Below are positions 18,569-63,968 of a DNA stretch of 64,000 nt, piece after piece (the first letter of the stretch is position 1; every line of letters starts with the position of its first letter). Where the stretch lies: IMG/VR virus record IMGVR_UViG_3300050121_000032, positions 1 to 64,000 of that record. One strand, given 5' to 3'. The position numbers and the translations under genes are program-made. The notes under the pieces are model-generated. The model was not told the origin of the DNA, made no database searches, and worked only from the letters and a program-made list of their open reading frames with translations. This DNA comes from a virus.

Positions 18569-18779
18569 GGCGCGGCGTCGGCCACGCCTCCTCGGCCTTG
18601 TAAGGTCCTTTTTGGATCGTGATCCGCATGCCGGGCGTGATCTGTACCAGCACCTCATCCCACGACTTCCCTGCCGCCTGCACCATCTTGTTGGCCGCCC
18701 TGATACACGACAGGGCCTCCGCGTCGTTGTCGGACTGGCTCAAGGCCAGCAGCTTCGCCAGTCGGGCCCGGTCAATCAC
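18552..18779 (-). CDS. DUF2786-like small protein
   Basis: 75 aa from GTG that overlaps the primase stop (GTGA). The core LAKLLALSQSDNDAEAL matches the DUF2786 helix pattern. Such proteins often accompany phage replication or modification genes; no reaction is known. It is the last gene of the leftward arm. Confidence 0.65.
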   Translation of the reverse strand: MIDRARLAKLLALSQSDNDAEALSCIRAANKMVQAAGKSWDEVLVQITPGMRITIQKGPYKAEEAWPTPRPKRPA

Positions 18780-21700
18780 CGCACAGCTCCCTGTACGAAC
18801 GCCGCGACACTCGCCGCGGTCGCGAGCCCGTTACCGTCCACGGTAAGTCCGGTCTCGATCTGCTCGTCGACGATCTCGACGCCAGCCTCGATCTTCACCT
18901 TCTCCTCGGGCGCGGTGAAGTTGATCATGTATTCCCACAGCGGCGTGTTGGGCTTGATGTTCAGCACGAGGCAGTGCTCACGCAGCGGCGGGTGGGACGT
19001 GCCCGACAACAACTGCAGCTTCTGCTGGGTCATGCCGAACTCCTGACGCATCGAAGCGAAGACCTGCGCGTCGGAGAACTTCATCTTGACCAGCCAGTCG
19101 CTGAAGTCGCGCGAGGCGATCACCAGCTGGTGATTGGCGATGGCGAACCGGAACTCGATGCCGCCCTGCATGTTGGTGGGTTGGGTCGGACCCCGGATGA
19201 TCTGCACGGGCTTGGGCGGCCGGCCCTTCTCGTTGTGCATGTAGTTCGTCCAGATGCCGCGCGCCGCCGCCTCACGTTCTTTAAGGTAGCGGGCCAGCAC
19301 GTCCTCACTGTTGTCGATCTCGCCGCCCTGTGCGTACTGCTCGCGCGCCACGATGTTCTCGTTGTAGACCTTGTACATGAAGTCCTCGGTCTGGTCGGGG
19401 TCGACATCGAGCCCCAGCTGCTTGGCGTACTTCGCCGCCAGCGTCATGATGGCCACGGTCGTGATCCAGTAGCGCTCCGACTTCTTGCCACCAGACTTGG
19501 ACTGCACCTCGTTGCATTTCAGCCGGAACTCCTCGGCAATCGCCGCATGGTTCTGGGCCAAGAATTTCGCATACAGAAGCCCCATGTGGCCGAAGTTGCG
19601 GTTGGTGCCCGACAGCAGCATCTCGGCGTCGGCATCGTTCAGCTGGCCGGGGCCACCGTTGATCCGCTTCACCTCCCACTCCAGCACCCGCATCTGCGAG
19701 GCGGTCGTGTTGAGGTTGTCCTTGCGCAGGAAACTGACGAGGCTGTCATTGGCGAGGTAGTGCAGCATCAGCTGGAACATGCCGACTTCCTGATGCTGTT
19801 TGCCGTCCTTCATGCGCGACTTCTCTTTGCCGCCATCCAGCTCGTGCATCACCGTCTTGAACTTCTTCCGCATCTCGTCGTCGGTGATCTCGTCCCAGTA
19901 GAAGGGGAGATGCCGCAGTGTCTTCATCATGCTGGCGATGCTGTTGGGTGTCGCACGCTCGGTGATCTTGGTCGCGAGAGGATGGCCCCAGACAGAGAGC
20001 CCGATACGGCTCGCCGATGACTTGCCGGCGCCGCTGTCACGCCCGTAGGCGGAGAGCACCGCGGTGTTCTTGCCGTTGAGGTACAGCAGCGGCGAGGCGA
20101 AGGCCATGAGCAGGATCGTGTTCAGCTCGGCGCGCTTCTGCCCGGTGATGACCGTCGTCGCCTTCATCCAGTCTTCCATGGTGCCGGTCGGTGTGTACAT
20201 CTGGACGAAGGTGGGGTCGACTGCGCCGCATGGGCGCTCGGTCCCGTCGTCCATGAAGATTTTGCCGCCGTAGGCGAAGCCTCGTACCTTGCCATCTTCC
20301 TCGTGCCAACCGAATGGGATCGTCTGTTGTGCTGCCGCGTGGGCTCGCAATTTGCCGATGGTGCTCAAGAAAAACTCCTTCAGGAACCGTTCGCCTCTGA
20401 TGTCGATCAGGACCCGCTTCTGGCTGAGGTACGCCGAGAAGCCCTGCTTGCAAACTTCGCCCATGTCCACCGACACCTGATCCTCAAACCCCTTGTCCAT
20501 GGACGCGGTGAAGTTCAGGTGCTCGCCGGGGTGCTTCTGCAGCCAGAACCCTTTGAGCTGGCATTGGAACAGCGGGATCATCGCGGTGTTGAGTTCACCG
20601 TCCTTCTCGATCTCGATCACTTTACAGATCAGACCGTCGTCATTCAACTCGAAGCTGGCGGGCAGCATCGAGGCAGCGGCCGCCGGCGACTGCACCGCGG
20701 GGCTTACCGTCGCGGTAACCGGCGTCGGTCTTATGTTGAGCGGTGATTTGCCCTTCGCGAAGAGCGGGCACGACGCGCACGATTTGCAGCCAGCGCCCTG
20801 AATGGTTGCACAAGAGGGATATCCAATTCCGCGATCATGTCGCTCAGCCATCTTGCGATCGTAGAGCGCCTGTGTGTCAGCCGCGGAATACGATGGGTGT
20901 CCCTGTGATATCCGGTGCGCGATGTCATTGCCGTTCTCCATGAAGGTGCTGCAGAGCACGGAGTACATCCACAGCGGCTGGTCGTAGTCCCGGCCTCCGG
21001 TGGTCAGGGCTTCGCGCAGGAAGCCGCACTGGCGGAAGATCGGGAACGGGTCGAGCAGGTTGTCGGCGTTCTTGTTGATGCCGGCGTCGAGGCCGGGCTC
21101 ACCCTTGAGGGCAGCGAATAGCGGGTGCGGCTTGCCGAAGGTGGCGAGCGTCACACCCTCGGCGAAGATCGAGGGAGCCGATGACTGCACATGTGCAGGA
21201 CCGGCAACGGCGAACTGCTTCAGAAAATCCAGCTGGGCGAAGTCGTACATAGCCAGCGGCAGCGGGGCGAGCGTCACCTCGCGCGGCGGGTCGTACTTGT
21301 GATTGAGGGTGCCCGGCACCCGCAGGATGCGGGCGATGTCGGTGGTCAGGCCAGTGTCGCACTTGATGGCGTTAGCGAGGAGCAGCTGCTTCAACCCGCT
21401 GGCGTATGGGAGCCACTCTGCTGGCTGCAGGGGCGTCTTGCTGATCCAGTAGATGTGGAGCCCGCCGCCAGAGCGCACGATGGCGCTGGGCGTTGGCAGC
21501 TTCACGGTCTTGGCAAACAACAGGATGCTCTTAAGAGCATCCTCCTCGGTGCCGTAATGCTTGGGGTCGTTGGCCTTGACGTCGCAGTCGATCCAGATCG
21601 CCTTCTGGGCGATGGCGTTGGATGCGAGCCGCACCGCCTTCGGCTTGCCCTTTTTGTTGACGCCGGCCGTTGACTGCAGCGATGTGCAGAACCAGACGTC

Positions 21701-21907
21701 CTTGAACTTGTTGCCGGCGACGATCCAGCCAGCTCGGTTGACGAACTCGGTGACGTCCCGGAACGGCCAGCCCATGCCCTTCGTCAGCCCGGTCTTGGGG
21801 GGCTGCGCGGGCATGGAATAGTGGAGATTTACATACCCGACATCATTAGGACCGGGCCACGCAACCACATTCGCCAAGAAGGCTGATACGGCGTTCCAGT
21901 CAGTCAT
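18776..21907 (-). CDS. primase-helicase fusion (RepB/prim-pol-like N-terminus, DUF927-type ATPase)
   Basis: 1043 aa from the ATG at 21907, coupled to the HNH gene by ATGA. The N-terminal half has archaeo-eukaryotic-type primase signs: WIDCDV (metal-binding D-x-D about 107-109), SGGGLHIYW (146-154) and ILRVPGTLNHK. A Cys-rich linker (CKSCASCP) follows. The C-terminal half is a DUF927/D5-like helicase: Walker A GRDSGAGKSS (about 620) and Walker B YWDEITDD (about 668). It would unwind and prime at phage forks with the PolA at 31500. It carries two dyads and a long perfect palindrome at 21522. Confidence 0.82.
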   Translation of the reverse strand: MTDWNAVSAFLANVVAWPGPNDVGYVNLHYSMPAQPPKTGLTKGMGWPFRDVTEFVNRAGWIVAGNKFKDVWFCTSLQSTAGVNKKGKPKAVRLASNAIAQKAIWIDCDVKANDPKHYGTEEDALKSILLFAKTVKLPTPSAIVRSGGGLHIYWISKTPLQPAEWLPYASGLKQLLLANAIKCDTGLTTDIARILRVPGTLNHKYDPPREVTLAPLPLAMYDFAQLDFLKQFAVAGPAHVQSSAPSIFAEGVTLATFGKPHPLFAALKGEPGLDAGINKNADNLLDPFPIFRQCGFLREALTTGGRDYDQPLWMYSVLCSTFMENGNDIAHRISQGHPSYSAADTQALYDRKMAERHDRGIGYPSCATIQGAGCKSCASCPLFAKGKSPLNIRPTPVTATVSPAVQSPAAAASMLPASFELNDDGLICKVIEIEKDGELNTAMIPLFQCQLKGFWLQKHPGEHLNFTASMDKGFEDQVSVDMGEVCKQGFSAYLSQKRVLIDIRGERFLKEFFLSTIGKLRAHAAAQQTIPFGWHEEDGKVRGFAYGGKIFMDDGTERPCGAVDPTFVQMYTPTGTMEDWMKATTVITGQKRAELNTILLMAFASPLLYLNGKNTAVLSAYGRDSGAGKSSASRIGLSVWGHPLATKITERATPNSIASMMKTLRHLPFYWDEITDDEMRKKFKTVMHELDGGKEKSRMKDGKQHQEVGMFQLMLHYLANDSLVSFLRKDNLNTTASQMRVLEWEVKRINGGPGQLNDADAEMLLSGTNRNFGHMGLLYAKFLAQNHAAIAEEFRLKCNEVQSKSGGKKSERYWITTVAIMTLAAKYAKQLGLDVDPDQTEDFMYKVYNENIVAREQYAQGGEIDNSEDVLARYLKEREAAARGIWTNYMHNEKGRPPKPVQIIRGPTQPTNMQGGIEFRFAIANHQLVIASRDFSDWLVKMKFSDAQVFASMRQEFGMTQQKLQLLSGTSHPPLREHCLVLNIKPNTPLWEYMINFTAPEEKVKIEAGVEIVDEQIETGLTVDGNGLATAASVAAFVQGAVR
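18831..18846. promoter_or_regulatory. dispersed dyad variant with 4-base spacer
   Basis: TTACCG-TCCA-CGGTAA: both arms perfect but one base longer in the centre than all other copies, near the 3' end of the primase-helicase gene and 52 bases before the GTG at 18779. Confidence 0.6.
20704..20718. promoter_or_regulatory. dispersed dyad, spacer TCG, intragenic
   Basis: Perfect arms inside the primase-helicase linker; read on the minus strand as V-T-A-T-V. Confidence 0.85.
21522..21543. repeat. perfect 22-bp palindrome in primase gene
   Basis: Left arm AGGATGCTCTT and its exact reverse complement with no spacer. It lies in codons for EDALKSILL of the primase domain. Arms this long are not expected by chance in 64 kb and differ from the TTACCG family. 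Confidence 0.7.
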
Positions 21908-22296
21908 TTGGAAAACCACTCTGCGGCCTGACGTAAAAGGCGTGGGTCGTCTCTAAAGCGCCCGCCACCGTTGTTGCAGTTGAGACATAGGATGCCGCGC
22001 ACATAGCCGGGATCGCCCTTCTTTTTCTTGTGGTTGTGGTCTACGTGCCAGTGCTTGCTGACTGGGTCGGGGGATCGGCATATACCACAGCGGTGTTGCT
22101 GCTCCATTAAGAGGATATCGTACTGATCCTGAGTTAGCCCATACACACGCAGAACCCGGAGCGCCTTCTTACGCCCCGGAAATTTCGCGTAAGCAACCTT
22201 CTGCTCTCGACAGGCTCTCGCGATGGCCGCCGCACGGAAGTCTGGGTCCGTGCGGTACCGTTCTTTCCACCGCGAATATTTAGCGGCGTTCGGCAT
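21904..22296 (-). CDS. endonuclease VII-type HNH nuclease, probable homing gene
   Basis: 130 aa. CxxC in CGICRSPD, DHNH in WHVDHNH, a second CxxC in LCLNCN and the RDDPRLLRQAAEW tail are the endonuclease VII pattern. It sits between the primase and the Cys-cluster gene with an ATGA overlap downstream and a 1-base gap upstream, so its insertion preserved translation of the neighbours. Same family as 4111 and 57434 but divergent. Confidence 0.88.
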   Translation of the reverse strand: MPNAAKYSRWKERYRTDPDFRAAAIARACREQKVAYAKFPGRKKALRVLRVYGLTQDQYDILLMEQQHRCGICRSPDPVSKHWHVDHNHKKKKGDPGYVRGILCLNCNNGGGRFRDDPRLLRQAAEWFSK

Positions 22297-37877: not shown

Positions 37878-38459
37878 CTAGGCTGCGATGCCCAGCATCT
37901 TGTTGAGGTCCGCCATCGCAATCGCAGGCAGGCCGGGAGGTGTCGGCACTGCGGCCTTGGCACCTTTGTAGAACTTGTGGCCCTCGGGCCAGACGTCCTT
38001 GAGCTGCTCCAGCGTGCGCACACCCTTGAGCAACGCCATCAGGGTCTTCTCCGCCTTATCACGCTCTGCAGCGAGCGTCTTCTTGTCGTGCTGGTAGTCG
38101 TGCCCACTCCCACGAGCGATCAACGCACGGTGCTTGTCCATCGTCAATGTGCCGATGCCCGTCCACGTATCAGCCGGCAGGCGTAGCGTGTTGGTAACGG
38201 GGCCACCAGTGCTGCCGTCGCCATTGAAAGCCCAGTCGTGACGTTCGCCGCCCATATTGAAGCGGTGACTTGTGCCCGTGGTGTAGAAACACTTTGGCAG
38301 GGCGTTGATGTGCTCCTGCTGCGTCTTGGTGAAGAGGGCATCGTAGATTGCCTTGGCGATGCGATCGTACTCCACATCGAGCGCGAGCTTGCGCTTGCCG
38401 AATGCGCTTTCCAGCGCGGTGTTGAGAATGAACTGCCGGGAAGCTGAGTTGAGTAACAT
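37878..38459 (-). CDS. unknown protein, 193 aa
   Basis: ATG preceded by GGAGACC. N-terminal helix (RQFILNTALESAFG), then a beta-rich region with HRFNMGGERHDW and a helical C-terminus (DKKTLAAERDKAEKTL). The opening weakly recalls putative nucleotide-modification proteins in other phages, but no catalytic motif supports that. Left unassigned. Confidence 0.55.
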   Translation of the reverse strand: MLLNSASRQFILNTALESAFGKRKLALDVEYDRIAKAIYDALFTKTQQEHINALPKCFYTTGTSHRFNMGGERHDWAFNGDGSTGGPVTNTLRLPADTWTGIGTLTMDKHRALIARGSGHDYQHDKKTLAAERDKAEKTLMALLKGVRTLEQLKDVWPEGHKFYKGAKAAVPTPPGLPAIAMADLNKMLGIAA

Positions 38460-39801: not shown

Positions 39802-40057
39802 AGTCGACCTCGCACTCTTGCACACCGCCGCAGTCGGTGCGCAATTGGTAGTCGCGCATCTCTTCGTCCGAGATCAATCCAAGACGATGCAGCGCTATGC
39901 AGGCGGCCCGTCCAATCGTGTATTTGGCGATCGTTGATCGGCCTTCAAAATCAGGGTGTGTTGCAGTCCAGCATTCATTCATGGTGACGCGGCCGAACTT
40001 GACGCCTATCAGCGCTGCCCGCGCCACAAGGTTTTGATCCTCCTCAGTGAGCTTCAT
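39788..40057 (-). CDS. small protein of a tandem family (member 2)
   Basis: 89 aa. AALIGVKFGRV near residue 15, then W.A..PDFEGRSTIAKYTIGRAACIALHRLGL. Similar spacing to its neighbours, suggesting local duplication. Confidence 0.55.
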   Translation of the reverse strand: MKLTEEDQNLVARAALIGVKFGRVTMNECWTATHPDFEGRSTIAKYTIGRAACIALHRLGLISDEEMRDYQLRTDCGGVQECEVDYAES

Positions 40058-40292
40058 AGGGTACTCCCTGCCACACGACGTCGTAGCCCACCAAATCCTC
40101 CAGCAGTAGCAGCAGCGTGTTGGACACGCGGCTGGCATGTCTCGGGACAGTATCGGGAGCCCATGCTCGCCAGTTGTGGGCGCCGTCTATAAATTCCCTG
40201 CGCTCAAAGCGCCAGCCCTTCAGCACGAGCATCGCCATGCGCTGCTGCAGCTTAGGCGGCAAGCTCAGCACACTGCGCTCTTCCTCACTCAT
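40044..40292 (-). CDS. small protein of a tandem family (member 3, divergent)
   Basis: 82 aa. MLVLKGWRFERREFIDG and NWRAWAPD partly match the family core. Overlaps both neighbours by about 10 bases. Confidence 0.5.
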   Translation of the reverse strand: MSEEERSVLSLPPKLQQRMAMLVLKGWRFERREFIDGAHNWRAWAPDTVPRHASRVSNTLLLLLEDLVGYDVVWQGVPYEAH

Positions 40293-40515
40293 GGGTGGCC
40301 ACGTTCGCACGATCCAATTCCTCCAATGCCCGCTTTGCGGTCGCGAATTTCGATGATCCCTCAACCCAGCCATGCTCGGCGGGGAGGAACGCAACCCAGA
40401 TGCATAGTTTCGTATAGCGCGTGTTGCGTCCAGCACGCTTGTGGAACGTGACGCCAGCGAGTGATGCCGTAGCAATCACTCGCTGCCACTCTTTGCTGTG
40501 CCGGCTGATCGCCAC
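40285..40515 (-). CDS. small protein of a tandem family (member 4)
   Basis: 76 aa from GTG overlapping the upstream stop (TAGTG). ATASLAGVTFHKRAG and W.AFLPAEHGWVEGSS..FATAKRALEEL match member 2 spacing. Confidence 0.5.
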   Translation of the reverse strand: MAISRHSKEWQRVIATASLAGVTFHKRAGRNTRYTKLCIWVAFLPAEHGWVEGSSKFATAKRALEELDRANVATHE

Positions 40516-40946
40516 TAGTCGCGTATCCCCATGATCGCCTGAGTGTGGTAGGCGCGCAGCTCTTCCCGCACCTTGGGCTCGGACGCTACCCAAATCTCGT
40601 GGATGCGGTCAAGATGATCCTGATCGAGCAGCGACCACGGCGATGCGCTGACACGCTCTATTTTGGTACCGTCTTGCGTGATGAACGCCTCGGGAGCGGG
40701 CACGCCTTGCTCCTCCAGCATGTCGTTGATCCGTGCATCCATGGCACGGTTCATCTGCCCGTAGTCGAAGGGCGTGTCCACCATCGCCGACGAGATGCCG
40801 TAGATGTGATGGCGCAGATCGTAGTTGGCGCAGTGCCCAGAGCGCGGACATTGATCTTCCGGACGACAACCGCAGCACGGTGCCGTGTAGTCGACGAAGC
40901 CTTCGCTGTCGAGCTGTGGGTCTCGCAGAAACTTAGTCTTGTCCAT
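40515..40946 (-). CDS. Cys-rich protein, unknown
   Basis: 143 aa; GAGGAG site. CCGCRPEDQCPRSGHC near residues 24-39 may bind zinc; the rest is helical and acidic. No family recognised. Confidence 0.6.
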   Translation of the reverse strand: MDKTKFLRDPQLDSEGFVDYTAPCCGCRPEDQCPRSGHCANYDLRHHIYGISSAMVDTPFDYGQMNRAMDARINDMLEEQGVPAPEAFITQDGTKIERVSASPWSLLDQDHLDRIHEIWVASEPKVREELRAYHTQAIMGIRD

Positions 40947-40951
40947 AGTGG

Positions 40952-41146
40952 CTACTCCTCAGTTGCCTTGTTGTAAGCGTTGAACTTGGCCACTGCCTGC
41001 TTGTGTGTGCAGTGGTTCGACGCTGCTCGAATGAGAAGCGCAACGGTGGCTCGCACCATGTTGCCCTTGGCATGTTCTAGCTCCGCCCTTGCCACCTTCA
41101 GGCGAAGGCGAAGCAGGTCTTCGTAGTGGTTATCCAGCCGTCGCAT
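40952..41146 (-). CDS. small helical protein
   Basis: 64 aa from the ATG at 41146 with GAGGAGG upstream; overlaps the next gene's end. Basic helices. Unknown. Confidence 0.5.
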   Translation of the reverse strand: MRRLDNHYEDLLRLRLKVARAELEHAKGNMVRATVALLIRAASNHCTHKQAVAKFNAYNKATEE

Positions 41147-41453
41147 CGCCCTCGTCCTCCTCTTCGAGTGCTCTCTCACGATCCTCGGCCTCGAACTCTT
41201 CGATGCCTTGGGCTGTCTCAGGCGTCAGCTCGCCGTGCAGGAAGTGCTCAGCCAGCGCCTTCTGGTGCTCCACATTGGGCACACCCTCGTCGTATTGCAT
41301 GATCACGCCGTTCTCGGGCTTGATGGTCTCGTGCACCATGGCGCTGACGCGCCTCGCCTTCTCACGTTCACCTTGGCCCTTGGCCCGATAGGTGAGCGCC
41401 TTGATCTCGCGCTTCAGCAGGCGAGCATCTTTCTTACTGATCTTCTGTCGCAT
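41130..41453 (-). CDS. acidic coiled-coil-like protein
   Basis: 107 aa; AGGAGGAG site. Lys/Arg-rich start and strongly acidic end (EEFEAEDRERALEEEDEGD). Unknown. Confidence 0.6.
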   Translation of the reverse strand: MRQKISKKDARLLKREIKALTYRAKGQGEREKARRVSAMVHETIKPENGVIMQYDEGVPNVEHQKALAEHFLHGELTPETAQGIEEFEAEDRERALEEEDEGDATAG

Positions 41454-41631
41454 GTGGCTCCTCCTGATGGGTGTACGGCAGGTGCAGCCCGTACTCGTTA
41501 AGTATTTCCCTGATCTCGTTCAGCGTGACCCTGCCCAGATTGGGGACGCCTCGAAATGGTGCTGGCCTACAATGCCGACCAGCGGGCGGGCTTGCGCCCT
41601 TGGTATCTTCACGAATGGGTGTAGCCGTCGG
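41434..41631 (-). CDS. RNA polymerase alpha-CTD-like helix-hairpin segment, start uncertain
   Basis: The frame ends in VPNLGRVTLNEIREILNEYG, close to the TPNLGRKSLNEIKEVL helix-hairpin-helix of the bacterial RNA polymerase alpha C-terminal domain. Only the second half of that fold is present and no ATG or GTG with a ribosome site precedes it. It may be made by frameshift from the 41609 gene, use a rare start, or be a remnant. The coordinates mark the plausible coding part. Confidence 0.4.
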   Translation of the reverse strand, partial: PTATPIREDTKGASPPAGRHCRPAPFRGVPNLGRVTLNEIREILNEYGLHLPYTHQEEPHATEDQ

Positions 41632-41857
41632 GTTCGATGCCCAGCCACATGCCCGACCACGGCAGCATGACGCAACCCGGTCCGGGTTGCACCCTCTTGC
41701 GGAACCGCCGATACTGGATCGTCGGCACCTTGACGATGCTGTCCCTGCCACTCCCCGGCCACATGATCGCTCGTTTGCCGGGTGACAGCCATCGTGGGAA
41801 GTCCCGCTGGAACACCCTGAAGATCGCTTCACGCTGTAACCTTGTTGTCTTGACCAT
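41609..41857 (-). CDS. small basic protein
   Basis: 82 aa; ATG at 41857 (or GTG at 41860) with GAGGAG. Basic first half (TTRLQREAIFRVFQRDF) then VPTIQYRRFRKRV. Possible nucleic-acid contact. It ends where the alpha-CTD-like frame begins. Confidence 0.6.
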   Translation of the reverse strand: MVKTTRLQREAIFRVFQRDFPRWLSPGKRAIMWPGSGRDSIVKVPTIQYRRFRKRVQPGPGCVMLPWSGMWLGIEPDGYTHS

Positions 41858-41895
41858 CACCGTGCTCCTCAGCCGGTTCGAGAGGTGGGAAGGGT

Positions 41896-41910
41896 TTACC
41901 GCGGCGGTAA
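41896..41910. promoter_or_regulatory. dispersed dyad, spacer CGG, intergenic
   Basis: Perfect arms, the copy nearest to the control region on the leftward side, 38 bases before the ATG at 41857. Confidence 0.85.
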
Positions 41911-41912
41911 GT

Positions 41913-41967
41913 GGGGCGGCGAGTTAGCGTTTGCACCCTTGCGGAGTGTGCTTGTTCTCGCCGCCCC
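41913..41967. promoter_or_regulatory. hairpin beside dyad, composite element 2
   Basis: Perfect 11-bp arms GGGGCGGCGAG and reverse complement, two bases from the dyad, then TACCCGGCCGGGGTT just before the stop of the next gene. Layout identical to 36564-36632. Confidence 0.65.
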
Positions 41968-41983
41968 TACCCGGCCGGGGTTC

Positions 41984-42232
41984 CTAGTCGAAGCGGCCGA
42001 CGAGGGTGCAGCCATTGGTGCAGGCCGGATGACCACACGATGCAGCGCACACCTGATGCGGGGCGAGGTGCCTTTTGCCGAACACAGGGCGCAGCCCGTT
42101 GTGGCTCGGGGTGAAGCAGGCCAGAGTGGGCGTCTTGCCGTACACGATCTGGCGCTCGAACTGCTGTGCCTTATAGAAGGCAGCGGCGGCGGCGGGGTCA
42201 CGATTGTACAACTTGCGGGAGAATGAGGTCAT
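41984..42232 (-). CDS. first leftward gene, small Cys/His protein
   Basis: 82 aa; ATG with GAGGAG. C-terminus has CAASCGHPACTNGC, likely zinc binding. It is the first gene transcribed leftward from the control region, so an early host-takeover or regulatory role is possible. Confidence 0.6.
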   Translation of the reverse strand: MTSFSRKLYNRDPAAAAAFYKAQQFERQIVYGKTPTLACFTPSHNGLRPVFGKRHLAPHQVCAASCGHPACTNGCTLVGRFD

Positions 42233-42416
42233 TGGATGCTCCTCAGCGATCCGGGTTTGTGCCCTGCACCCCCTGATGGGGATCGACGCCAGTTGGGGCG
42301 CGAGGGTCGCATTTGGCCCGTCGGGCCGGCCTCGCGCGCGCAGAAGCATCGCCCGCGCGTTGGTTCACTGGTGGCTGGCGCCACCCTTTTTAGGCTCTGC
42401 AGGAGGGGATTTTATA

Positions 42417-42440
42417 GCTGCAGCGCTGGCGCGCTGCAGC
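42417..42440. repeat. inverted repeat, 10-bp arms
   Basis: GCTGCAGCGC, four bases, reverse complement. On the leftward strand it is followed by TATAAAAT. Confidence 0.6.
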
Positions 42441-42465
42441 CGCTGGCGCTCCTTTACGTTTTTCT

Positions 42466-43041
42466 GGACATTTAGCCTAATCGTTAACGTATGGGGGTTC
42501 CATCACTCGTCTGTGATTGGCCATTTATCGGACATTTAGCGATGTGGTTAACGTATGGGGGTTCCATCACGGGTTTGTGTTGGGACATTTATGGGGCTGG
42601 AGCGAGCCATGTCATTTTGTGGGTCTACCTTGGCACCTTCTCGAATAAATGGCCTAAATGTCCAAATGTCCCAGCATACCCTCGGACCGGTTGGTACCAC
42701 CCACTTAAAGAAAGGTAAATGCGAAGGTGTACCCACTTAAGAAAGGGTAAAGATCGGCTAAGTCACTCGAAAATATGGTGAAAAGGCCACGAACCCCCTA
42801 TTTGTTCTTTTAAGATAGACATTTGGACATTTAGGATTTTCCTGCCGTTGTTAACCTACGGTTTTGCCCCAAATCGCCTGCCTACCCAAAATGGGTATGG
42901 GGGGTATGGGGGGTACGACCGGTGGGGGGGAGTATGCTGGACATTTGGACATTTGGACATTTAAGAAAAGGTTAAGATGAAAAGGTAGCAAGATCAAACA
43001 CTTAGCTATTATAGCGTAAAAGTCGGCTGATTTGGACATAT
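42466..43041. repeat. GGACATTT iteron-like repeats
   Basis: Direct copies at 42466, 42530, 42583, 42825, 42939, 42947 and 42955 (the last three in perfect tandem), inverted copies at 42655 and 42664, and near matches at 42519, 42817 and 43034. Many end in A (GGACATTTA). Clustered only in the control region as far as seen, as expected for an initiator-binding origin. Confidence 0.75.
42483..42570. repeat. 24-bp direct repeat, 64-bp period
   Basis: Identical copies at 42483-42506 and 42547-42570, each beginning GTTAACGTATGGGGG and followed by a GGACATTT iteron. Could be duplicated promoter or initiator sites. Confidence 0.8.
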
Positions 43042-43151
43042 AGTCTTACTCTGATACCGTCGAGCTATGCGTTTTGCGCAATGGTCTTTTTGAGGTTACA
43101 TTCTCGTAAGGTACTACCTTGATACCTTGAAACCGCTCAGCAGCTTCTCTT

Positions 43152-43182
43152 CCAGCCTTGGGCTGGCAGGCTGGCGCCAGCC
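43152..43182. repeat. paired palindromes in rightward leader
   Basis: CCAGCC-TTG-GGCTGG at 43152 and a perfect 14-bp palindrome GGCTGGCGCCAGCC at 43169, in the GC-rich leader before the first rightward gene. Confidence 0.6.
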
Positions 43183-43319
43183 TTCCCGCGCGCGGATGTG
43201 AAGAACGCGCGCATCACGCGCGTGTGGTCTGTCCTGCCGTGAAAGCCGGCGACGCCGTTTGCCCGACGGGCCAAAGGCATCGGCCAACCGGTCGACAACC
43301 CAACGTTGAGGAGCGTAAA

Positions 43320-43502
43320 ATGGATATCAAGGTACAGGGCGACAAGCTGGTTATCACCATTGACATTTCGGCTGAAGCCTTCAAGGGCGCACTGCCCTCT
43401 TCCAGCGGCAAAACCCGGGTGGTCGCTTCCACCCATGGTTTCGCCAACTATGTGACGCCCAACGGTTCGCTGGGCCTTTCCCTGAATGCCACCACGAAGT
43501 GA
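43320..43502 (+). CDS. first rightward gene, small beta-strand protein
   Basis: 60 aa; GAGGAG site. MDIKVQGDKLVITIDI opens a beta pattern followed by KTRVVASTHG, a layout found in small early proteins of many phages. Function unknown. It is the first gene on the rightward arm. Confidence 0.65.
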   Translation: MDIKVQGDKLVITIDISAEAFKGALPSSSGKTRVVASTHGFANYVTPNGSLGLSLNATTK

Positions 43503-43509
43503 GGTTTCC

Positions 43510-43607
43510 CCTGCCCGGCTAGCGTCGGGCAGGCACTCCACCGCCCGGCCCTTGCTGGTATCCCCCCACCAGCATGGACCGGGCGGCCCCATCTCACTGC
43601 GTGAGAC
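43510..43607 (+). other. run of three hairpins after the first rightward gene
   Basis: CCTGCCCG stem (43510-43533), a nested CCGCCCGG and TGCTGGT stem (43541-43586), and TCTCAC-TGC-GTGAGA. The 43503-43810 gap holds no gene; besides these it has AT-rich AAGGTA-type palindromes and the terminator at 43749. May stabilise the early mRNA or be a small RNA. Confidence 0.5.
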
Positions 43608-43748
43608 GTACCCTGAAAATATATTTTGGTCCAAAAGGTATATTAACCTTTTGTTAAGGTACCACCCCCTAAAACACTCAGACGACATGGTTGCGGGCAC
43701 AGGTTGCCCAAAGGCGTTGTGCTTACCGGGAGCGATACCCCGACGAAG

Positions 43749-43785
43749 AGGCCCCCGAGACCACAGGGGGCCTTTACCTTTTATA
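43749..43785 (+). terminator. intrinsic terminator
   Basis: AGGCCCCC stem with its complement GGGGGCCT and a U-rich tail (TTACCTTTT). It ends the first rightward transcript. Confidence 0.7.
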
Positions 43786-43810
43786 AAGGTACCGCCCCCA
43801 AAATCCCCCC

Positions 43811-44020
43811 ATGTCCGAAGCCCTTAAACGCCTCACCAGATGTGGCCGCTGCGGCGACTGGTTCTATCGCTGCCCGCACATCGGAGTGCCGGTGAAAATG
43901 GCCGACGAAGAAGCCGAGCGCGTCCGGGCCCGCTACGCGATCGGCCGGCGGCTCAATCCGGAGCATGACGTGACCAGTTACCGTGACGGTAAAGACATAG
44001 GAGACCCCAATGTGGTTTGA
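43811..44020 (+). CDS. small zinc-knuckle protein
   Basis: 69 aa. CGRCGDWFYRCPH is a likely zinc knuckle. No clear ribosome site; the start is the first ATG after the terminator. The dyad at 43978 is read as Y-R-D-G-K. Confidence 0.55.
   Translation: MSEALKRLTRCGRCGDWFYRCPHIGVPVKMADEEAERVRARYAIGRRLNPEHDVTSYRDGKDIGDPNVV
43978..43992. promoter_or_regulatory. dispersed dyad, spacer TGA, before a small gene
   Basis: Perfect arms, 17 bases before the ATG at 44010 and next to its AGGAG. Confidence 0.85.
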
Positions 44021-44141
44021 AGCTGGAGAGTACGCATGGCCCGGAGTGAACTTCCTTCTCCACTGCGGGGGTATCGCCCTTTTGATTGGCGCGCTCACCC
44101 TCGCCTATAACGTTCACCGATCGTGGAGCGCGCCATCATGA
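44010..44141 (+). CDS. small membrane protein
   Basis: 43 aa; TAGGAG site. One transmembrane helix (GVNFLLHCGGIALLIGALTL). Coupled to the next gene by ATGA. Confidence 0.6.
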   Translation: MWFEAGEYAWPGVNFLLHCGGIALLIGALTLAYNVHRSWSAPS

Positions 44142-44416
44142 TCCTCTCGATCGTAGTCACCGTCTGCCATATGGCACTCAGCGCGCCACCCGACCAAGGC
44201 TACCTGATCGAGCCCGAGCGGATGCGCCCTGCCAGCTTTATGGACCTATGTCACGATGATGTGCTCGCCGAGGAAGATATGCCCATGCAGACCTGCATGC
44301 TCAGCGAGCCGCAGATCGCCTACTGGAAAGAGCACAGTGTCTACGCCGCGTCGGGCTGGACGGTAAAAAAGTGGAGGTGCATCCCCGGTCACTATGTCGT
44401 GAAGGATGCGATCTAG
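44138..44416 (+). CDS. small secreted protein
   Basis: 92 aa. Signal-like start (MILSIVVTVCHMALSAP), then an acidic Cys-containing domain (C..., C, C) likely periplasmic. Similar layout to the 18201 gene. Possible superinfection or lysis accessory. Confidence 0.55.
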   Translation: MILSIVVTVCHMALSAPPDQGYLIEPERMRPASFMDLCHDDVLAEEDMPMQTCMLSEPQIAYWKEHSVYAASGWTVKKWRCIPGHYVVKDAI

Positions 44417-44801
44417 CAAAGCTCCTGCTTCTTGTGCTGCGCGCGCCACCGACCCGGTGCCATTAAGGTTCTATTAAGGTGTCACGGGCAAGGATTTGTC
44501 GCGGGCAAAAGCCCTACCAGGATAATGGTGGTGCCGGGCCTGATGTCCAGAGACCGGGTGGGCGTTGGAACTCACGCCTGATCTCTGGTGGGAAACTTGG
44601 TGGCGGCATCGTCGCTGCCTCCGTTACAGCTCGCCGGCAGTACGCGCCGGGGAGCATCAATACATTAAGACTTCCTTAAGGGGAGTAACAGGGTCGAGCG
44701 GAAATCGTTCGATCACGTTGTGGTGAAGCGCGTCGGACCCTACGGATGTACTAGGGGACCACCCGACTACCTTCCCACCTTGATGTCGAGAAGGATGCGC
44801 G
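44417..44801 (+). other. 385-base gap with structured element
   Basis: No convincing gene; a 66-codon frame at 44479 has no ribosome site or sensible composition. At 44547-44588 nested stems (CCAGAGA with TCTCTGG, GGCGT with ACGCC) could form an RNA. Repeated TTAAGGT-like words occur at 44463-44482 and 44663-44681. Confidence 0.45.
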
Positions 44802-45113
44802 ATGGCGGCCAGCTTCGACGAACATATCTTCCGGGAAGCCCGGGTCATTGCGCTCTGCTGCACGCTCCCGAGCAAGGCGGCCGCGCTCGAGGAGGCCTCC
44901 GGTGCGTGCCGGGAAGTTTTCGATCGCTTCAATATATCGGCGAGCCGCACGGACTTTCAGCTGCTGGTGGGTCTCTGGACCCGCATGCTCCTCGCGATGG
45001 ACGACTGCGGCCCGTGGCTCGGCAAGGGTCCTCCTGATCCTGATCGACTGGCTCACTCAGATCAGGCCGTTGCCAAGGACGTGGCGGCAGTTCTGGCGTC
45101 GGATCGGAGCTAA
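44802..45113 (+). CDS. small helical protein, unknown
   Basis: 103 aa; GAGAAGGA site. Two Cys in LCCTLPSKAAALEEASGAC and a hydrophobic core. No family recognised. Confidence 0.55.
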   Translation: MAASFDEHIFREARVIALCCTLPSKAAALEEASGACREVFDRFNISASRTDFQLLVGLWTRMLLAMDDCGPWLGKGPPDPDRLAHSDQAVAKDVAAVLASDRS

Positions 45114-45136
45114 CAAATCGTAAAGGACCACCCGGT

Positions 45137-45406
45137 ATGTTCGACTTCTCTGCGATCTTCGGCAAGGGGCTCGACGCCACCACCGATAGAGAACTTCTTC
45201 ATCACATCATAAAGGAACTTCACACCATGGCAGTCGATGTCTCCAAGCTCTCCGCTGCAGTCGCCAAGCTCTCCACCGACGTGGACACGCTCGTCGCTGC
45301 GCATACCGATCCGGCCGCGCAGAACGCGGTCGATGCAGCCACCGCGGCCGTCGAAGGTCTCTCCGTCAAGGTCGAGGCCGCACTGGCGCCGGCGCCCGCG
45401 GCTTAA
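45137..45406 (+). CDS. coiled-coil protein
   Basis: 89 aa from ATG with AAAGGA. The C-terminal part (VDVSKLSAAVAKLSTDVDTLV) is a coiled coil like small phage accessory proteins. An internal ATG at 45227 also has AAAGGA and may give a shorter form. Confidence 0.6.
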   Translation: MFDFSAIFGKGLDATTDRELLHHIIKELHTMAVDVSKLSAAVAKLSTDVDTLVAAHTDPAAQNAVDAATAAVEGLSVKVEAALAPAPAA

Positions 45407-45417
45407 CCATCCTTCAA

Positions 45418-45444
45418 CCCGCTCCCCGATATAAAGGGAGCGGG
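45418..45444 (+). terminator. terminator-like hairpin
   Basis: Perfect 9-bp stem CCCGCTCCC with complement, after the coiled-coil gene, but no U-run follows. Confidence 0.4.
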
Positions 45445-45530
45445 CCCGCGCCGCGCGCGATCGGATCAATCTCCGCCGGTCACCGTTGGGGGTGTTGCGA
45501 TGCGGGCCCACTCTCTCCCGGAGAATACCA

Positions 45531-45647
45531 ATGCTGATCGCGGCAATCGCCATCCTCTACATCATCCTCGGGCTCGGGCTCGCCGCCGCTGTTGTCGCCG
45601 GATATTTCTACTGGCTCTCCGCCAACGGCAAGAACCCGTTCCAGTAA
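45531..45647 (+). CDS. 38-aa membrane peptide
   Basis: ATG with CGGAGAA. One long transmembrane helix (LIAAIAILYIILGLGLAAAVV) then YFYWLSANGKNPFQ. Too short for usual gene finders; clear ribosome site and composition support it. Confidence 0.6.
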   Translation: MLIAAIAILYIILGLGLAAAVVAGYFYWLSANGKNPFQ

Positions 45648-45668
45648 TTCAATTCAATGTGAGGTTCG

Positions 45669-45866
45669 ATGCTGTTGACAATCACGCTTGCGTGGTCACT
45701 GGCCAAGTGTTGCCCCATCGTGGATCACTACCGGCAACAAGGTTTCACGGACGCGCAGATCGAAGAAGGCGCCCGCGCGCAGGGTGTTCCGTCTTGGATC
45801 ATCGCGCTGGCGAAGCGACATTGCAAAGCGCAAGTCCCGAACAGCTCACTTCGTAAAGATAGTTGA
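45669..45866 (+). CDS. small protein with membrane-like start
   Basis: 65 aa; GAGG site. Hydrophobic N-terminus with CC, then a helix (QQGFTDAQIEEGARAQG). Its stop lies within the -35 of the next promoter. Confidence 0.55.
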   Translation: MLLTITLAWSLAKCCPIVDHYRQQGFTDAQIEEGARAQGVPSWIIALAKRHCKAQVPNSSLRKDS

Positions 45867-45891
45867 CACCGGACAAAACGTCGCATCTATT
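45863..45891 (+). promoter_or_regulatory. sigma70-like promoter of the regulator gene
   Basis: TTGACA (45863-45868), 17-base spacer, TCTATT (45886-45891), 35 bases before the ATG of the winged-helix gene. The -35 is consensus. Confidence 0.55.
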
Positions 45892-45925
45892 CGAGAGGCA
45901 GTCGCGTCACGGGGAAAAAACAAAA

Positions 45926-46507
45926 ATGAATGCGCTCACCGTCGTTGAACAAGACCCAAGCCTCAAGCCCTTCGCCGACGCCATCGCGATCCGCATGGCC
46001 GACGAAGGGATACCAGTCCGGGCTATCGCGCGCTCGGTGAGACTTCCATCAGAAGACGTCTACGAAATTCTCAAGGAAGCAATTGGCCGCGGCTCACTCG
46101 TCGAGCTACCAAAAGATGACTGGCCGGCCGGGACTACACGGGGCTCACGCAGTGCATTCAACAGGACATCAGTCGAAACCGACGAAGCTCTCAAAGCCGC
46201 ATGCGCAAGGGTGTTTCGTGCCACCCCACTGGAAGCCGCATTGCTGGCCGTCCTGCTAAGGCGGGGCCAAGTAACCAAGACACAGCTGCACATCGTCATC
46301 GAGCAGAACCGCCCGAGTGAAAACCGGGAGGAGACCGACCCCAAGATGGTCGACGTGATGATCTGCCACCTCCGCAAAAAACTGAAGCCGCACAAGATCG
46401 AGATCACGACGATGTGGGGCCTCGGCTACCTTATCGAGACGTCGCACCGCACGAAAGCGGTCGCGCTGCTGCAACCGCCGGAAGAGCTAAAGGTGATCTG
46501 TGGCTGA
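45926..46507 (+). CDS. OmpR/PhoB-type winged-helix regulator without receiver domain
   Basis: 193 aa from ATG with GGGGA. Residues 15-55 form a helix-turn-helix-like N-terminal part (PVRAIARSVRLPSEDVYEIL). Residues 100-171 match the Trans_Reg_C winged helix (VDVMICHLRKKLKPHKIEI, GLGYLIE). The response-regulator receiver domain is absent, so it is not controlled by phosphorylation in the usual way. It probably controls rightward middle/late genes and is the best candidate in the window for a dyad-binding protein, though that is untested. It has its own promoter at 45863. Confidence 0.75.
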   Translation: MNALTVVEQDPSLKPFADAIAIRMADEGIPVRAIARSVRLPSEDVYEILKEAIGRGSLVELPKDDWPAGTTRGSRSAFNRTSVETDEALKAACARVFRATPLEAALLAVLLRRGQVTKTQLHIVIEQNRPSENREETDPKMVDVMICHLRKKLKPHKIEITTMWGLGYLIETSHRTKAVALLQPPEELKVICG

Positions 46508-46865: not shown

Positions 46866-47029
46866 AGAGGATCATCTCCAGCGAGGGCGTTCTGCCGGCT
46901 GGCCTGTTCATCACGAACGGCCCAACCTACGGCCTCGGCTATAACGGCGCGGGAACGGGCTGCTACCGCTGGCTCCTCGGCTGGTCGCCGTGGGTTGGTT
47001 GGCGCCGCTGCTGGGAGCGGATCACATGA
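46862..47029 (+). CDS. small Gly/Trp-rich protein, tentative
   Basis: 55 aa from TTG overlapping the upstream stop (TTGA). GPTYGLGYNGAGTGCYRWLLGW is membrane-active-like. Ends in ATGA, coupling the terminase-like gene. Confidence 0.4.
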   Translation: MKRIISSEGVLPAGLFITNGPTYGLGYNGAGTGCYRWLLGWSPWVGWRRCWERIT

Positions 47030-47751
47030 CCGACCACGTCGACACAGGCTTCGACGCAGTGCTCGCCGGCGAGGTGTGGACCCCGCCGGAAGAGCCGCAA
47101 CCAACCATCACCATATCTGAAGCGCCACCGCAGGAGCCGCACACCTGCGCGAACGCGCATGGCGGCACCACCTGCGACGTCTGCTTCGGCCCAGTTACCG
47201 CGACGGTAACTCCCGGCCTCACCCCCGCCGGCGTGCAGGCCGCGAAGGCACTCGTCCAGCTGCCGCCCTTGTCGCCACCCGATCTGGCGAAGCTCGCGCG
47301 CGAGATGGCGATGGACATCAAGGAGCGCTCCGCGATCCTCACCGAGTTCAAGCTTAGCGAGACCCAGTATGACTTCCTCGAAGCGAACAACGAGTTCTAC
47401 AAGGCCGCGCTCCACGCCGCCTGCATCGAGTGGCACGCTCCTCTCTCCACTCAGGAGAGGATTAAGGTTGAGGCTGCAGCGATCCTCGAAGACAGCCTCC
47501 CCGGTCTGGGCGCTCGAATGCAGAACAAAGGGGAAGGCCTACCCGGGGTTATCGAAGCTGCTAAGCTATTTGCAAAAGTCGCCGGTGTTGGTGAGCGAGA
47601 AGTTGGGCCGGGAAATTCTGGCGAACGTTTCGTTATTAACATTGACCTCGGCGGAGACCAAAAAATTACCGTTGAAACGGCGCCAGCTCCGACAGCGGCT
47701 GTTCAATCGGATCATGTGCGCGCGCTTCCGAAGGACGGAGGCACGTCGTGA
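47026..47751 (+). CDS. terS: terminase small subunit-like protein
   Basis: 241 aa; ATGA overlap and GGGAG. The central block (FKLSETQYDFLEANNEFYKAAL, EWHAPLSTQERIKVEAAAILEDSLP, AAKLFAKVAGVGE) is the conserved part of a phage protein found before the large terminase. Its position two genes before TerL supports a DNA-recognition packaging role. The Cys-rich N-terminal part carries a dyad at 47195 read as VTATVT. Confidence 0.6.
   Translation: MTDHVDTGFDAVLAGEVWTPPEEPQPTITISEAPPQEPHTCANAHGGTTCDVCFGPVTATVTPGLTPAGVQAAKALVQLPPLSPPDLAKLAREMAMDIKERSAILTEFKLSETQYDFLEANNEFYKAALHAACIEWHAPLSTQERIKVEAAAILEDSLPGLGARMQNKGEGLPGVIEAAKLFAKVAGVGEREVGPGNSGERFVINIDLGGDQKITVETAPAPTAAVQSDHVRALPKDGGTS
47195..47209. 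promoter_or_regulatory. dispersed dyad, spacer CGA, intragenic
   Basis: Perfect arms in the terminase-small-like gene, read as P-V-T-A-T-V-T. Confidence 0.85.
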
Positions 47752-63056: not shown

Positions 63057-63968
63057 ATGGTAACCATCGTCTCCCCCGCTCCAATCTACGCGCGCCCCGT
63101 CGTGGTCGTTGTTGGGCCTACCGGCCCCGCCGGCGGCGCCACTGGCGGTGCTGGTTCAACCGGCCCGACCGGTGCCGCGGCCGCAACCGGCCCGACTGGA
63201 TCAACGGGCCCGACCGGGCTCGGCGCGACCGGCGCGACCGGCGTTACCGGACCGCGTGGTCTGACTGGCTACACCGGTCCTCCGGGAAACTCGTTCACCG
63301 GCCCGACTGGTCTTGCCGCTACGGGTGTGACCGGTTCGACTGGCCCCCAAGGCGTGACCGGAGCCACGGGCAACACGGGCCCTCAAGGCGTGACTGGCCC
63401 GACCGGCAACACCGGTCCGACGGGCGTCCCCGGCTCGGCAACGAACACCGGCGCCACTGGCCCCACGGGCTTCAATGGCACCACTGGCGGCACCGGACCG
63501 ACCGGTCCGACCGGTCCGACCGGTGTCACCGGCGCTGCCGGTACGGCAACGAACACCGGCTCGACCGGGCCCACCGGCGCCACGGGGCCGTCGCAGATTT
63601 GCGATCTCGCCTTCGTCATCGACGGCGGCGGGTCAGTGCTGACCACCGGCGTGAAGGGATACATCACCGTCGACTTCGCCGGCACGATCCAGCAGAGCAC
63701 CCTGCTTGCCGATCAGTCGGGCTCGATCGTGATTGACATCTGGAAGTGTACCTACGCGCAGTTCGACGCGGGCGCCACGCACCCGGTTGCGGCCGACAAG
63801 ATCACTGCATCGGCCCCGCCGACGATCTCGACCGCGACCAAGGCACAGGACAGCACGCTCACCGGCTGGACGAAGACCTTCTCTGCCGGCGACATCTTCG
63901 CCTTCAGCATCACCAGTGTGACGACCATCCAGCGCGCCACCATCGCCCTTAAAGCGCTGAGGTCGTAA
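63057..63968 (+). CDS. collagen-like virion protein 3
   Basis: 303 aa; ATG with GGAGA. A short head ([17 protein letters not shown]), about 55 G-x-y triplets (residues 19-178) rich in GPTG and GATG, and a C-terminal beta domain (about 183-303; [18 protein letters not shown]) shared with phage fibre heads. Likely a collagen-stalked fibre with a C-terminal binding knob. Separate from the first two collagen genes but of the same Thr-rich type. Confidence 0.85.

What the first reader, a model, noticed from the sequence alone, without database searches (positions are those of the whole stretch)
42466..43041. Iteron-like GGACATTT array in the divergent gap, candidate replication origin
About ten copies of an 8-9-mer in both orientations, three of them in perfect tandem, fall within 600 bases of AT-richer noncoding DNA between the two transcription arms. 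Iterons plus an AT-rich stretch at the divergence point are typical of replication origins bound by an initiator. No initiator of a known type is obvious in the window other than the primase-helicase.
Basis: partly seen in the sequence, partly recalled or inferred. Interest (0 to 1): 0.7.

Follow-up and report, generated by a model that had tools for sequence, protein, structure and literature searches.

The report
Swappable phage replication origin with iterons
The repeats mark the most likely place where this environmental phage starts copying its DNA, and its relatives keep the same layout while each lineage spells the repeats differently, apparently in step with the DNA-reading end of the helicase that would start replication.

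Summary
The array is real: 9 exact GGACATTT copies in the 64-kb window, all within 42466-42962 (1.2 expected; 0.04 in shuffles of the gap), plus 4 one-mismatch copies to 43042. The core is two tandem 8-bp groups in opposite orientation, 42656-42671 (-) and 42939-42962 (+), about 270 bp apart, in the lowest-GC stretch of the genome. About 20 relatives carry the same kind of array in the same gap, but the word differs: GGACATTT, GGACACTT, CCACCATTTTCC, TAATATG, TATTAGC, TAGACAG, GAAATGCT, TGCTATGC, ACCGTG, GACCAATTA. In 13 of 14 genomes this is the lowest-GC window (second in the other). Words track the C-terminal part of the DUF927 primase-helicase (18776-21919), encoded more than 20 kb away, and not its primase part or the wHTH regulator. 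Its nearest solved structures are SCCmec Cch and SaPIbov1 Rep, self-loading initiator helicases; SaPI Reps read iterons with their C-terminus. Best reading: a bidirectional origin read by that protein, with lineage-specific iterons. No replication or binding data exist. One distant relative (G001) shares the word without C-terminal similarity. Novelty: a new variant of a known kind.

The parts
42233..43319 (.). Divergent non-coding gap holding the proposed origin
   Evidence: GC 0.53
42656..42671 (-). Left iteron group: two GGACATTT in perfect 8-bp tandem, pointing left
42939..42962 (+). Right iteron group: three GGACATTT in perfect 8-bp tandem, pointing right
42817..42832 (+). Further tandem pair AGACATTT-GGACATTT
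42466..42593 (+). Two copies of a 64-bp direct repeat, each starting with GGACATTTAG; they hold three outlying exact iterons (42466, 42530, 42583) and one imperfect (42519)
43034..43042 (+). Outlying imperfect iteron GGACATATA
42701..43100 (.). Lowest-GC stretch of the genome (300-bp windows 0.43-0.44), proposed unwinding element
18776..21919 (-). Primase-helicase, 1047 aa, DUF927; proposed initiator; residues about 860-1010 are the proposed iteron-reading part
42627..42639 (-). AAGGTNNNAAGGT tandem motif flanking the iterons
43116..43128 (-). AAGGTNNNAAGGT tandem motif, other flank
41984..42232 (-). First gene of the minus arm, 82 aa, unknown
43320..43502 (+). First gene of the plus arm, 60 aa, unknown

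Best explanation
The array is the phage's replication origin. Two groups of 8-bp tandem iterons in opposite orientation lie on either side of AT-rich DNA. The phage's DUF927 primase-helicase probably reads them with its C-terminal domain, loads one ring at each group, melts the DNA between them and starts two divergent forks, priming with its own N-terminal primase. Lineages differ in the iteron word and in the matching C-terminal part, so origin specificity behaves as a swappable or fast-evolving module. Shown by sequence: the array, its architecture, its conservation, the lowest-GC position and the co-variation. Inferred: binding, ring loading, melting and bidirectional replication.
For: Not chance. 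Inverted pairs of 8-12 bp tandem repeats occur at one locus only in 12 of 15 genomes scanned whole, and that locus is the array. In all seven GGACATTT carriers the left group points left and the right group right. The array region is the lowest-GC 300-bp window of the genome in 13 of 14 and second in the other. Among 40 protein families or segments the helicase C-terminus (860-1010) has the largest excess identity for same-word pairs: +26%, 4.1 SD without G001; permutation p 0.0015 without and 0.027 with G001; the N-terminal primase gives p 0.80 and the wHTH regulator 0.39. WIN and G002 (same word) share 43% in the C-terminus against 20% for WIN and G019 (other word), although backbone identity is 58% and 61%. 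In the helicase plus C-terminal tree the four same-word phages are one clade, support 100, on a stem of 1.05 changes per site. The protein matches SCCmec Cch and SaPIbov1 Rep by profile (E 2e-18, 2e-13) and by fold (Z 27.9, 24.0). SaPI Rep uses its C-terminus to recognise an iteron origin (PMC7581432).
Against: No replication, binding or read-depth data. GC skew shows no origin signature independent of transcription. G001 has 11 GGACATTT copies but its helicase C-terminus is no closer to the same-word group than to others. A second protein, 46990-47751, also co-varies with the word (p 0.0005). In G013 the array is weak (p 0.08 and 0.03); none was found in G021 or in the isolate RHph_TM3_14A. 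Same-word pairs are few and related. Here the origin is more than 20 kb from the initiator gene, whereas SaPI origins lie directly downstream of rep.
Confidence: 0.77

Rival explanations
1. The repeats are operators: a phage transcription regulator, such as the OmpR-like winged-helix protein at 45926-46507, binds them to switch the two divergent arms.
For: The array sits between two divergent arms, and a conserved regulator with an OmpR-type C-terminal domain is encoded 3 kb away. In the GGACATTT carriers the tandem groups point outward, along transcription.
Against: The regulator's DNA-reading parts are conserved across phages with different words and show no co-variation (p 0.39). In G001 the array appears to lie between two minus-strand ORFs, not at a divergent gap (the right-hand ORF has no homologue). 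An operator array does not by itself explain why the array region is the lowest-GC window of nearly every genome.
Confidence: 0.13
2. The repeats are a packaging (pac) site bound by a small terminase subunit, possibly the 253-aa protein at 46990-47751 encoded just upstream of the exonuclease-like and terminase large subunit genes.
For: That protein co-varies with the word (permutation p 0.0005, excess 5-7%).
Against: The protein is not identified as a terminase by any search, its excess identity is much smaller than that of the helicase C-terminus, and the array is about 4 kb upstream of it, whereas pac sites usually lie in or near the small terminase gene (general knowledge).
Confidence: 0.06
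3. The array is a partition or incompatibility locus of a plasmid-like phage.
For: Tandem 8-bp repeats in both orientations also suit ribbon-helix-helix or ParB-type proteins (general knowledge).
Against: No ParA, ParB or integrase-like gene was found among the proteins scanned (not every gene was scanned), and no homologue of the wHTH gene was found in cellular genomes.
Confidence: 0.03

Closest known systems
SaPIbov1 Rep and its iteron origin (Staphylococcus pathogenicity islands)
   Same: Initiator helicase of the DUF927 type, best-matching fold together with SCCmec Cch (Z 24.0, E 2e-13); origin of multiple short iterons; [quoted passage not shown]
   Different: Here primase and helicase are one protein, the element is a phage of about 66 kb, and the origin is more than 20 kb from the initiator gene rather than directly downstream.
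SCCmec Cch and Cch2
   Same: Cch is the closest solved structure (Z 27.9, E 2e-18); Cch2 binds direct repeats of a 5-nt iteron through its C-terminal domain (PMC7581432).
   Different: SCCmec replication is not shown in vivo; Cch2 belongs to another helicase family and has only three iterons.
PLE RepA and origin of Vibrio cholerae phage satellites
   Same: [quoted passage not shown] an origin-directed nuclease of the helper phage may select for this (PMC8263062).
   Different: RepA_N-type initiator without helicase or primase, iterons of about 30 bp, a satellite and not a phage.
Phage P4 alpha protein and ori
   Same: Primase-helicase fusion that initiates at short iterons (fusion stated in PMC7145576; iterons from general knowledge).
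   Different: Not compared by sequence here.

Membership tests
DUF927 self-loading initiator helicases (SaPIbov1 Rep / SCCmec Cch) | DUF927 domain | tested here: met
   PF06048 E 7e-14, 52.6 bits against a cut-off of 22.6
DUF927 self-loading initiator helicases (SaPIbov1 Rep / SCCmec Cch) | Helicase fold of Cch and Rep | tested here: met
   Profile E 2e-18 and 2e-13; Z 27.9 and 24.0 over 391 and 362 residues, next entries Z 11.6 and below
DUF927 self-loading initiator helicases (SaPIbov1 Rep / SCCmec Cch) | C-terminal domain that binds origin DNA | tested here: inconclusive
   The fold alignment runs into the C-terminal domain (model residues to 513-517) and this part co-varies with the word, but the C-terminus alone finds no solved relative by sequence and binding was not measured
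SaPI-type replicon | Origin made of multiple short iterons | tested here: met
SaPI-type replicon | Origin directly downstream of the rep gene | tested here: not met
   The rep-like gene spans 18776-21919 (-), iterons start at 42466
DnaA-dependent origin | Cluster of DnaA boxes | tested here: not met
   TTATNCACA with up to one mismatch: 16 in the window, 16.9 expected, one in the iteron region and one near 43200
Autonomous origin | Replication starts here in vivo | not testable with these tools
   No reads or infection data available

The most novel reading that the evidence does not exclude
These phages carry about ten mutually different origin specificities on a common backbone, kept diverse because a shared word is a liability: satellites, rival phages or origin-cutting nucleases could exploit it. 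Iteron word and helicase C-terminus would then change together as a compatibility module, as reported for PLE satellites but here in the phages themselves.
Probability: 0.35. Interest if true: 0.8.

Novelty: new variant of a known kind. Interest (0 to 1): 0.64.

Why it matters
If right, it gives a natural series of related phages whose origins differ mainly in an 8-12 bp word and in the matching DNA-reading part of one helicase: a ready system for working out how a self-loading helicase recognises iterons, how origin specificity evolves, and whether satellites or origin-directed nucleases drive it. It also gives a sequence-only way to find origins in uncultured phages: look for inverted tandem repeats at the lowest-GC window.

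Tried and rejected
Chance and composition: rejected by whole-window and gap-only shuffles. GC skew as an origin signal: follows transcription, uninformative. DnaA boxes: not enriched. Known RNA families in 40000-46000: none. Sigma-70 and terminator scans: about background. Similar DNA in the phage collection: none; cellular genomes with the wHTH gene: none. The wHTH regulator as reader of the word: no co-variation. Unrelated viral contigs with the 16-mer GGACATTTGGACATTT: of 19 such records searched, only G001 has a DUF927 protein; the 18 others have no DUF927, DUF3987 or VapE-like match, though several are fragments. The hypothesis that G001's helicase C-terminus resembles the same-word group: not supported. 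Clear topology conflict between primase and helicase halves for G002: not established in the N-terminal tree (AU p 0.115), although the C-terminal tree strongly rejects grouping WIN, G004 and G005 with G019 and G020 without G002 (p 2e-9). Two SaPI origin papers (PMC3804134, PMC1964853) are not held.

Full report
Observation. The window holds nine exact GGACATTT, all between 42466 and 42962, against 1.17 expected; with one mismatch four more lie in the same stretch up to 43042. The core is two perfect 8-bp tandems on opposite strands, 42656-42671 (-) and 42939-42962 (+). Shuffling the gap alone (42233-43319) gives 0.04 copies on average and never an inverted pair of tandem groups. The 16-mer occurs nowhere else in the 66,029-bp virus record.

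Context. The minus arm (from 42232 leftwards) carries replication genes: an HNH/VWA-type protein, an ATPase, a DNA polymerase, an SNF2-type helicase and a DUF927 primase-helicase; the plus arm carries an OmpR-like winged-helix protein, terminase, portal and other structural genes. The nearest isolates found by the primase-helicase are Rhizobium phages (31% identity).

Relatives. Loci found by the ATPase and by the winged-helix protein show a repeat array in the same gap. The same word GGACATTT occurs in G004, G005, G002, L025 and L033 and in the distant G001. Other lineages have other words: GGACACTT, CCACCATTTTCC, TAATATG, TATTAGC, TAGACAG, GAAATGCT, TGCTATGC, ACCGTG, and in G019 GACCAATTA. 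Each array except G013's clearly beats shuffles of its own gap (L074 at p 0.007-0.017). The layout recurs: tandem groups with 8-12 bp period in opposite orientations, about 120-310 bp apart; L064 is mixed. A scan of 15 genomes for inverted pairs of tandem repeats found exactly one locus in each of 12 genomes, always the array, and none in G013, G019 and G021 at that stringency.

Unwinding element. In 13 of 14 genomes with a located array the lowest-GC 300-bp window of the whole record lies at the array; in the other it ranks second. Low GC was not used to find the arrays, except as a cross-check in G013, G019 and G021.

Reader of the word. For 40 protein families or segments I compared pairwise identity, corrected for backbone identity, between same-word and different-word pairs. 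Without the very distant G001 the helicase C-terminus (860-1010) leads with +26% (4.1 SD), followed by the two helicase segments; the primase N-terminus shows +0.3%. Label permutations with near-duplicate G005 removed give p 0.0015 for the C-terminus without G001 and 0.027 with it; 0.80 for the primase part and 0.39 for the winged-helix regulator. These p values are not corrected for the 40 families tested. One other protein, 46990-47751, also passes (p 0.0005, but only 5-7%). The initiator gene lies more than 20 kb from the array, so linkage does not explain its signal. In the tree of residues 500-1010 the four same-word phages form a clade (support 100) on a long stem; grouping WIN, G004 and G005 with G019 and G020 without G002 is rejected (p 2e-9); in the N-terminal tree G002 is a long branch and its place is unresolved. 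G001 is an exception that I cannot explain: same word, no C-terminal similarity. It may be convergence, retention of an ancestral word, or a different reader.

Nature of the initiator. PF06048 (DUF927) is met. The profile finds SCCmec Cch (E 2e-18) and SaPIbov1 Rep (E 2e-13). A model of residues 490-1047 (mean pLDDT 79.7) matches the same two structures at Z 27.9 and 24.0, far above the next entries at about 11. According to PMC7581432, SaPI Rep helicases recognise their iteron origins with their C-terminal domain and appear to bind as two hexamers, and Cch is the DUF927 relative of SaPIbov1 Rep. PMC5862659 describes AEP primases fused to DUF927 in mobile elements. In PMC8263062 PLE origins co-vary with the DNA-binding domain of RepA, and a phage nuclease aimed at the iterons is proposed to select for swapping.

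Mechanism. Two opposed iteron groups would place two helicase rings facing each other across AT-rich DNA, giving two divergent forks. The array, its symmetry, its GC minimum and the co-variation are shown; binding, loading and melting are inferred.

Limits. There is no experiment; the same-word pairs are few; several relatives are fragments; no array was found in G021 or in the isolate RHph_TM3_14A; record completeness is unknown.

Noticed in passing
42627-42639, 43116-43128, 44769-44781 (-): AAGGTNNNAAGGT, an 8-bp-period motif, occurs only here in the window and is concentrated within 2.5 kb of the array in most relatives regardless of their iteron word; reader unknown.
   Followed up: partly
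42961-42975, 43643-43657, 44463-44477, 44665-44679: TTAA-N7-TTAA, the spacing of CtrA boxes: 6 in the window against 0.05 expected, 4 of them here; not consistent across relatives.
   Followed up: partly
45926-46507 (+): Conserved two-domain regulator: an N-terminal helical domain and an OmpR-type winged helix (Pfam E 4e-9; SaeR-like by profile), found in 59 viral loci, not found in cellular genomes.
   Followed up: partly
42309-42326 and 43261-43278: Both arms begin with mirrored leaders sharing an 18-nt GCCCGACGGGCCAAA-type element (94% complementary), followed by a GAGGAGC ribosome site.
   Followed up: no
46990-47751 (+): 253-aa protein of unknown family that co-varies with the iteron word (p 0.0005); possibly a small terminase subunit by position.
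   Followed up: partly
37878-38459 (-): Nmad5 domain (nucleotide modification associated, E 1e-18): the phage may carry modified DNA.
   Followed up: no
L118 and L123 (primases of G014 and G011): Same iteron class; primase N-terminal parts 94% identical while the helicase part is only 49% identical: a likely domain exchange.
   Followed up: partly
L007, L008, L014, L016, L028-L030, L036: A 43%-GC group of viral contigs has one GGACATTT tandem with GTCC repeats; in L016 it overlaps the start of a tyrosine-recombinase-like gene. No DUF927 in the three records searched, L007, L008 and L016.
   Followed up: partly
63151-63589 (+): Collagen-like short tandem repeats (ACCGGTCCG-type), probably in a tail fibre gene.
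   Followed up: no
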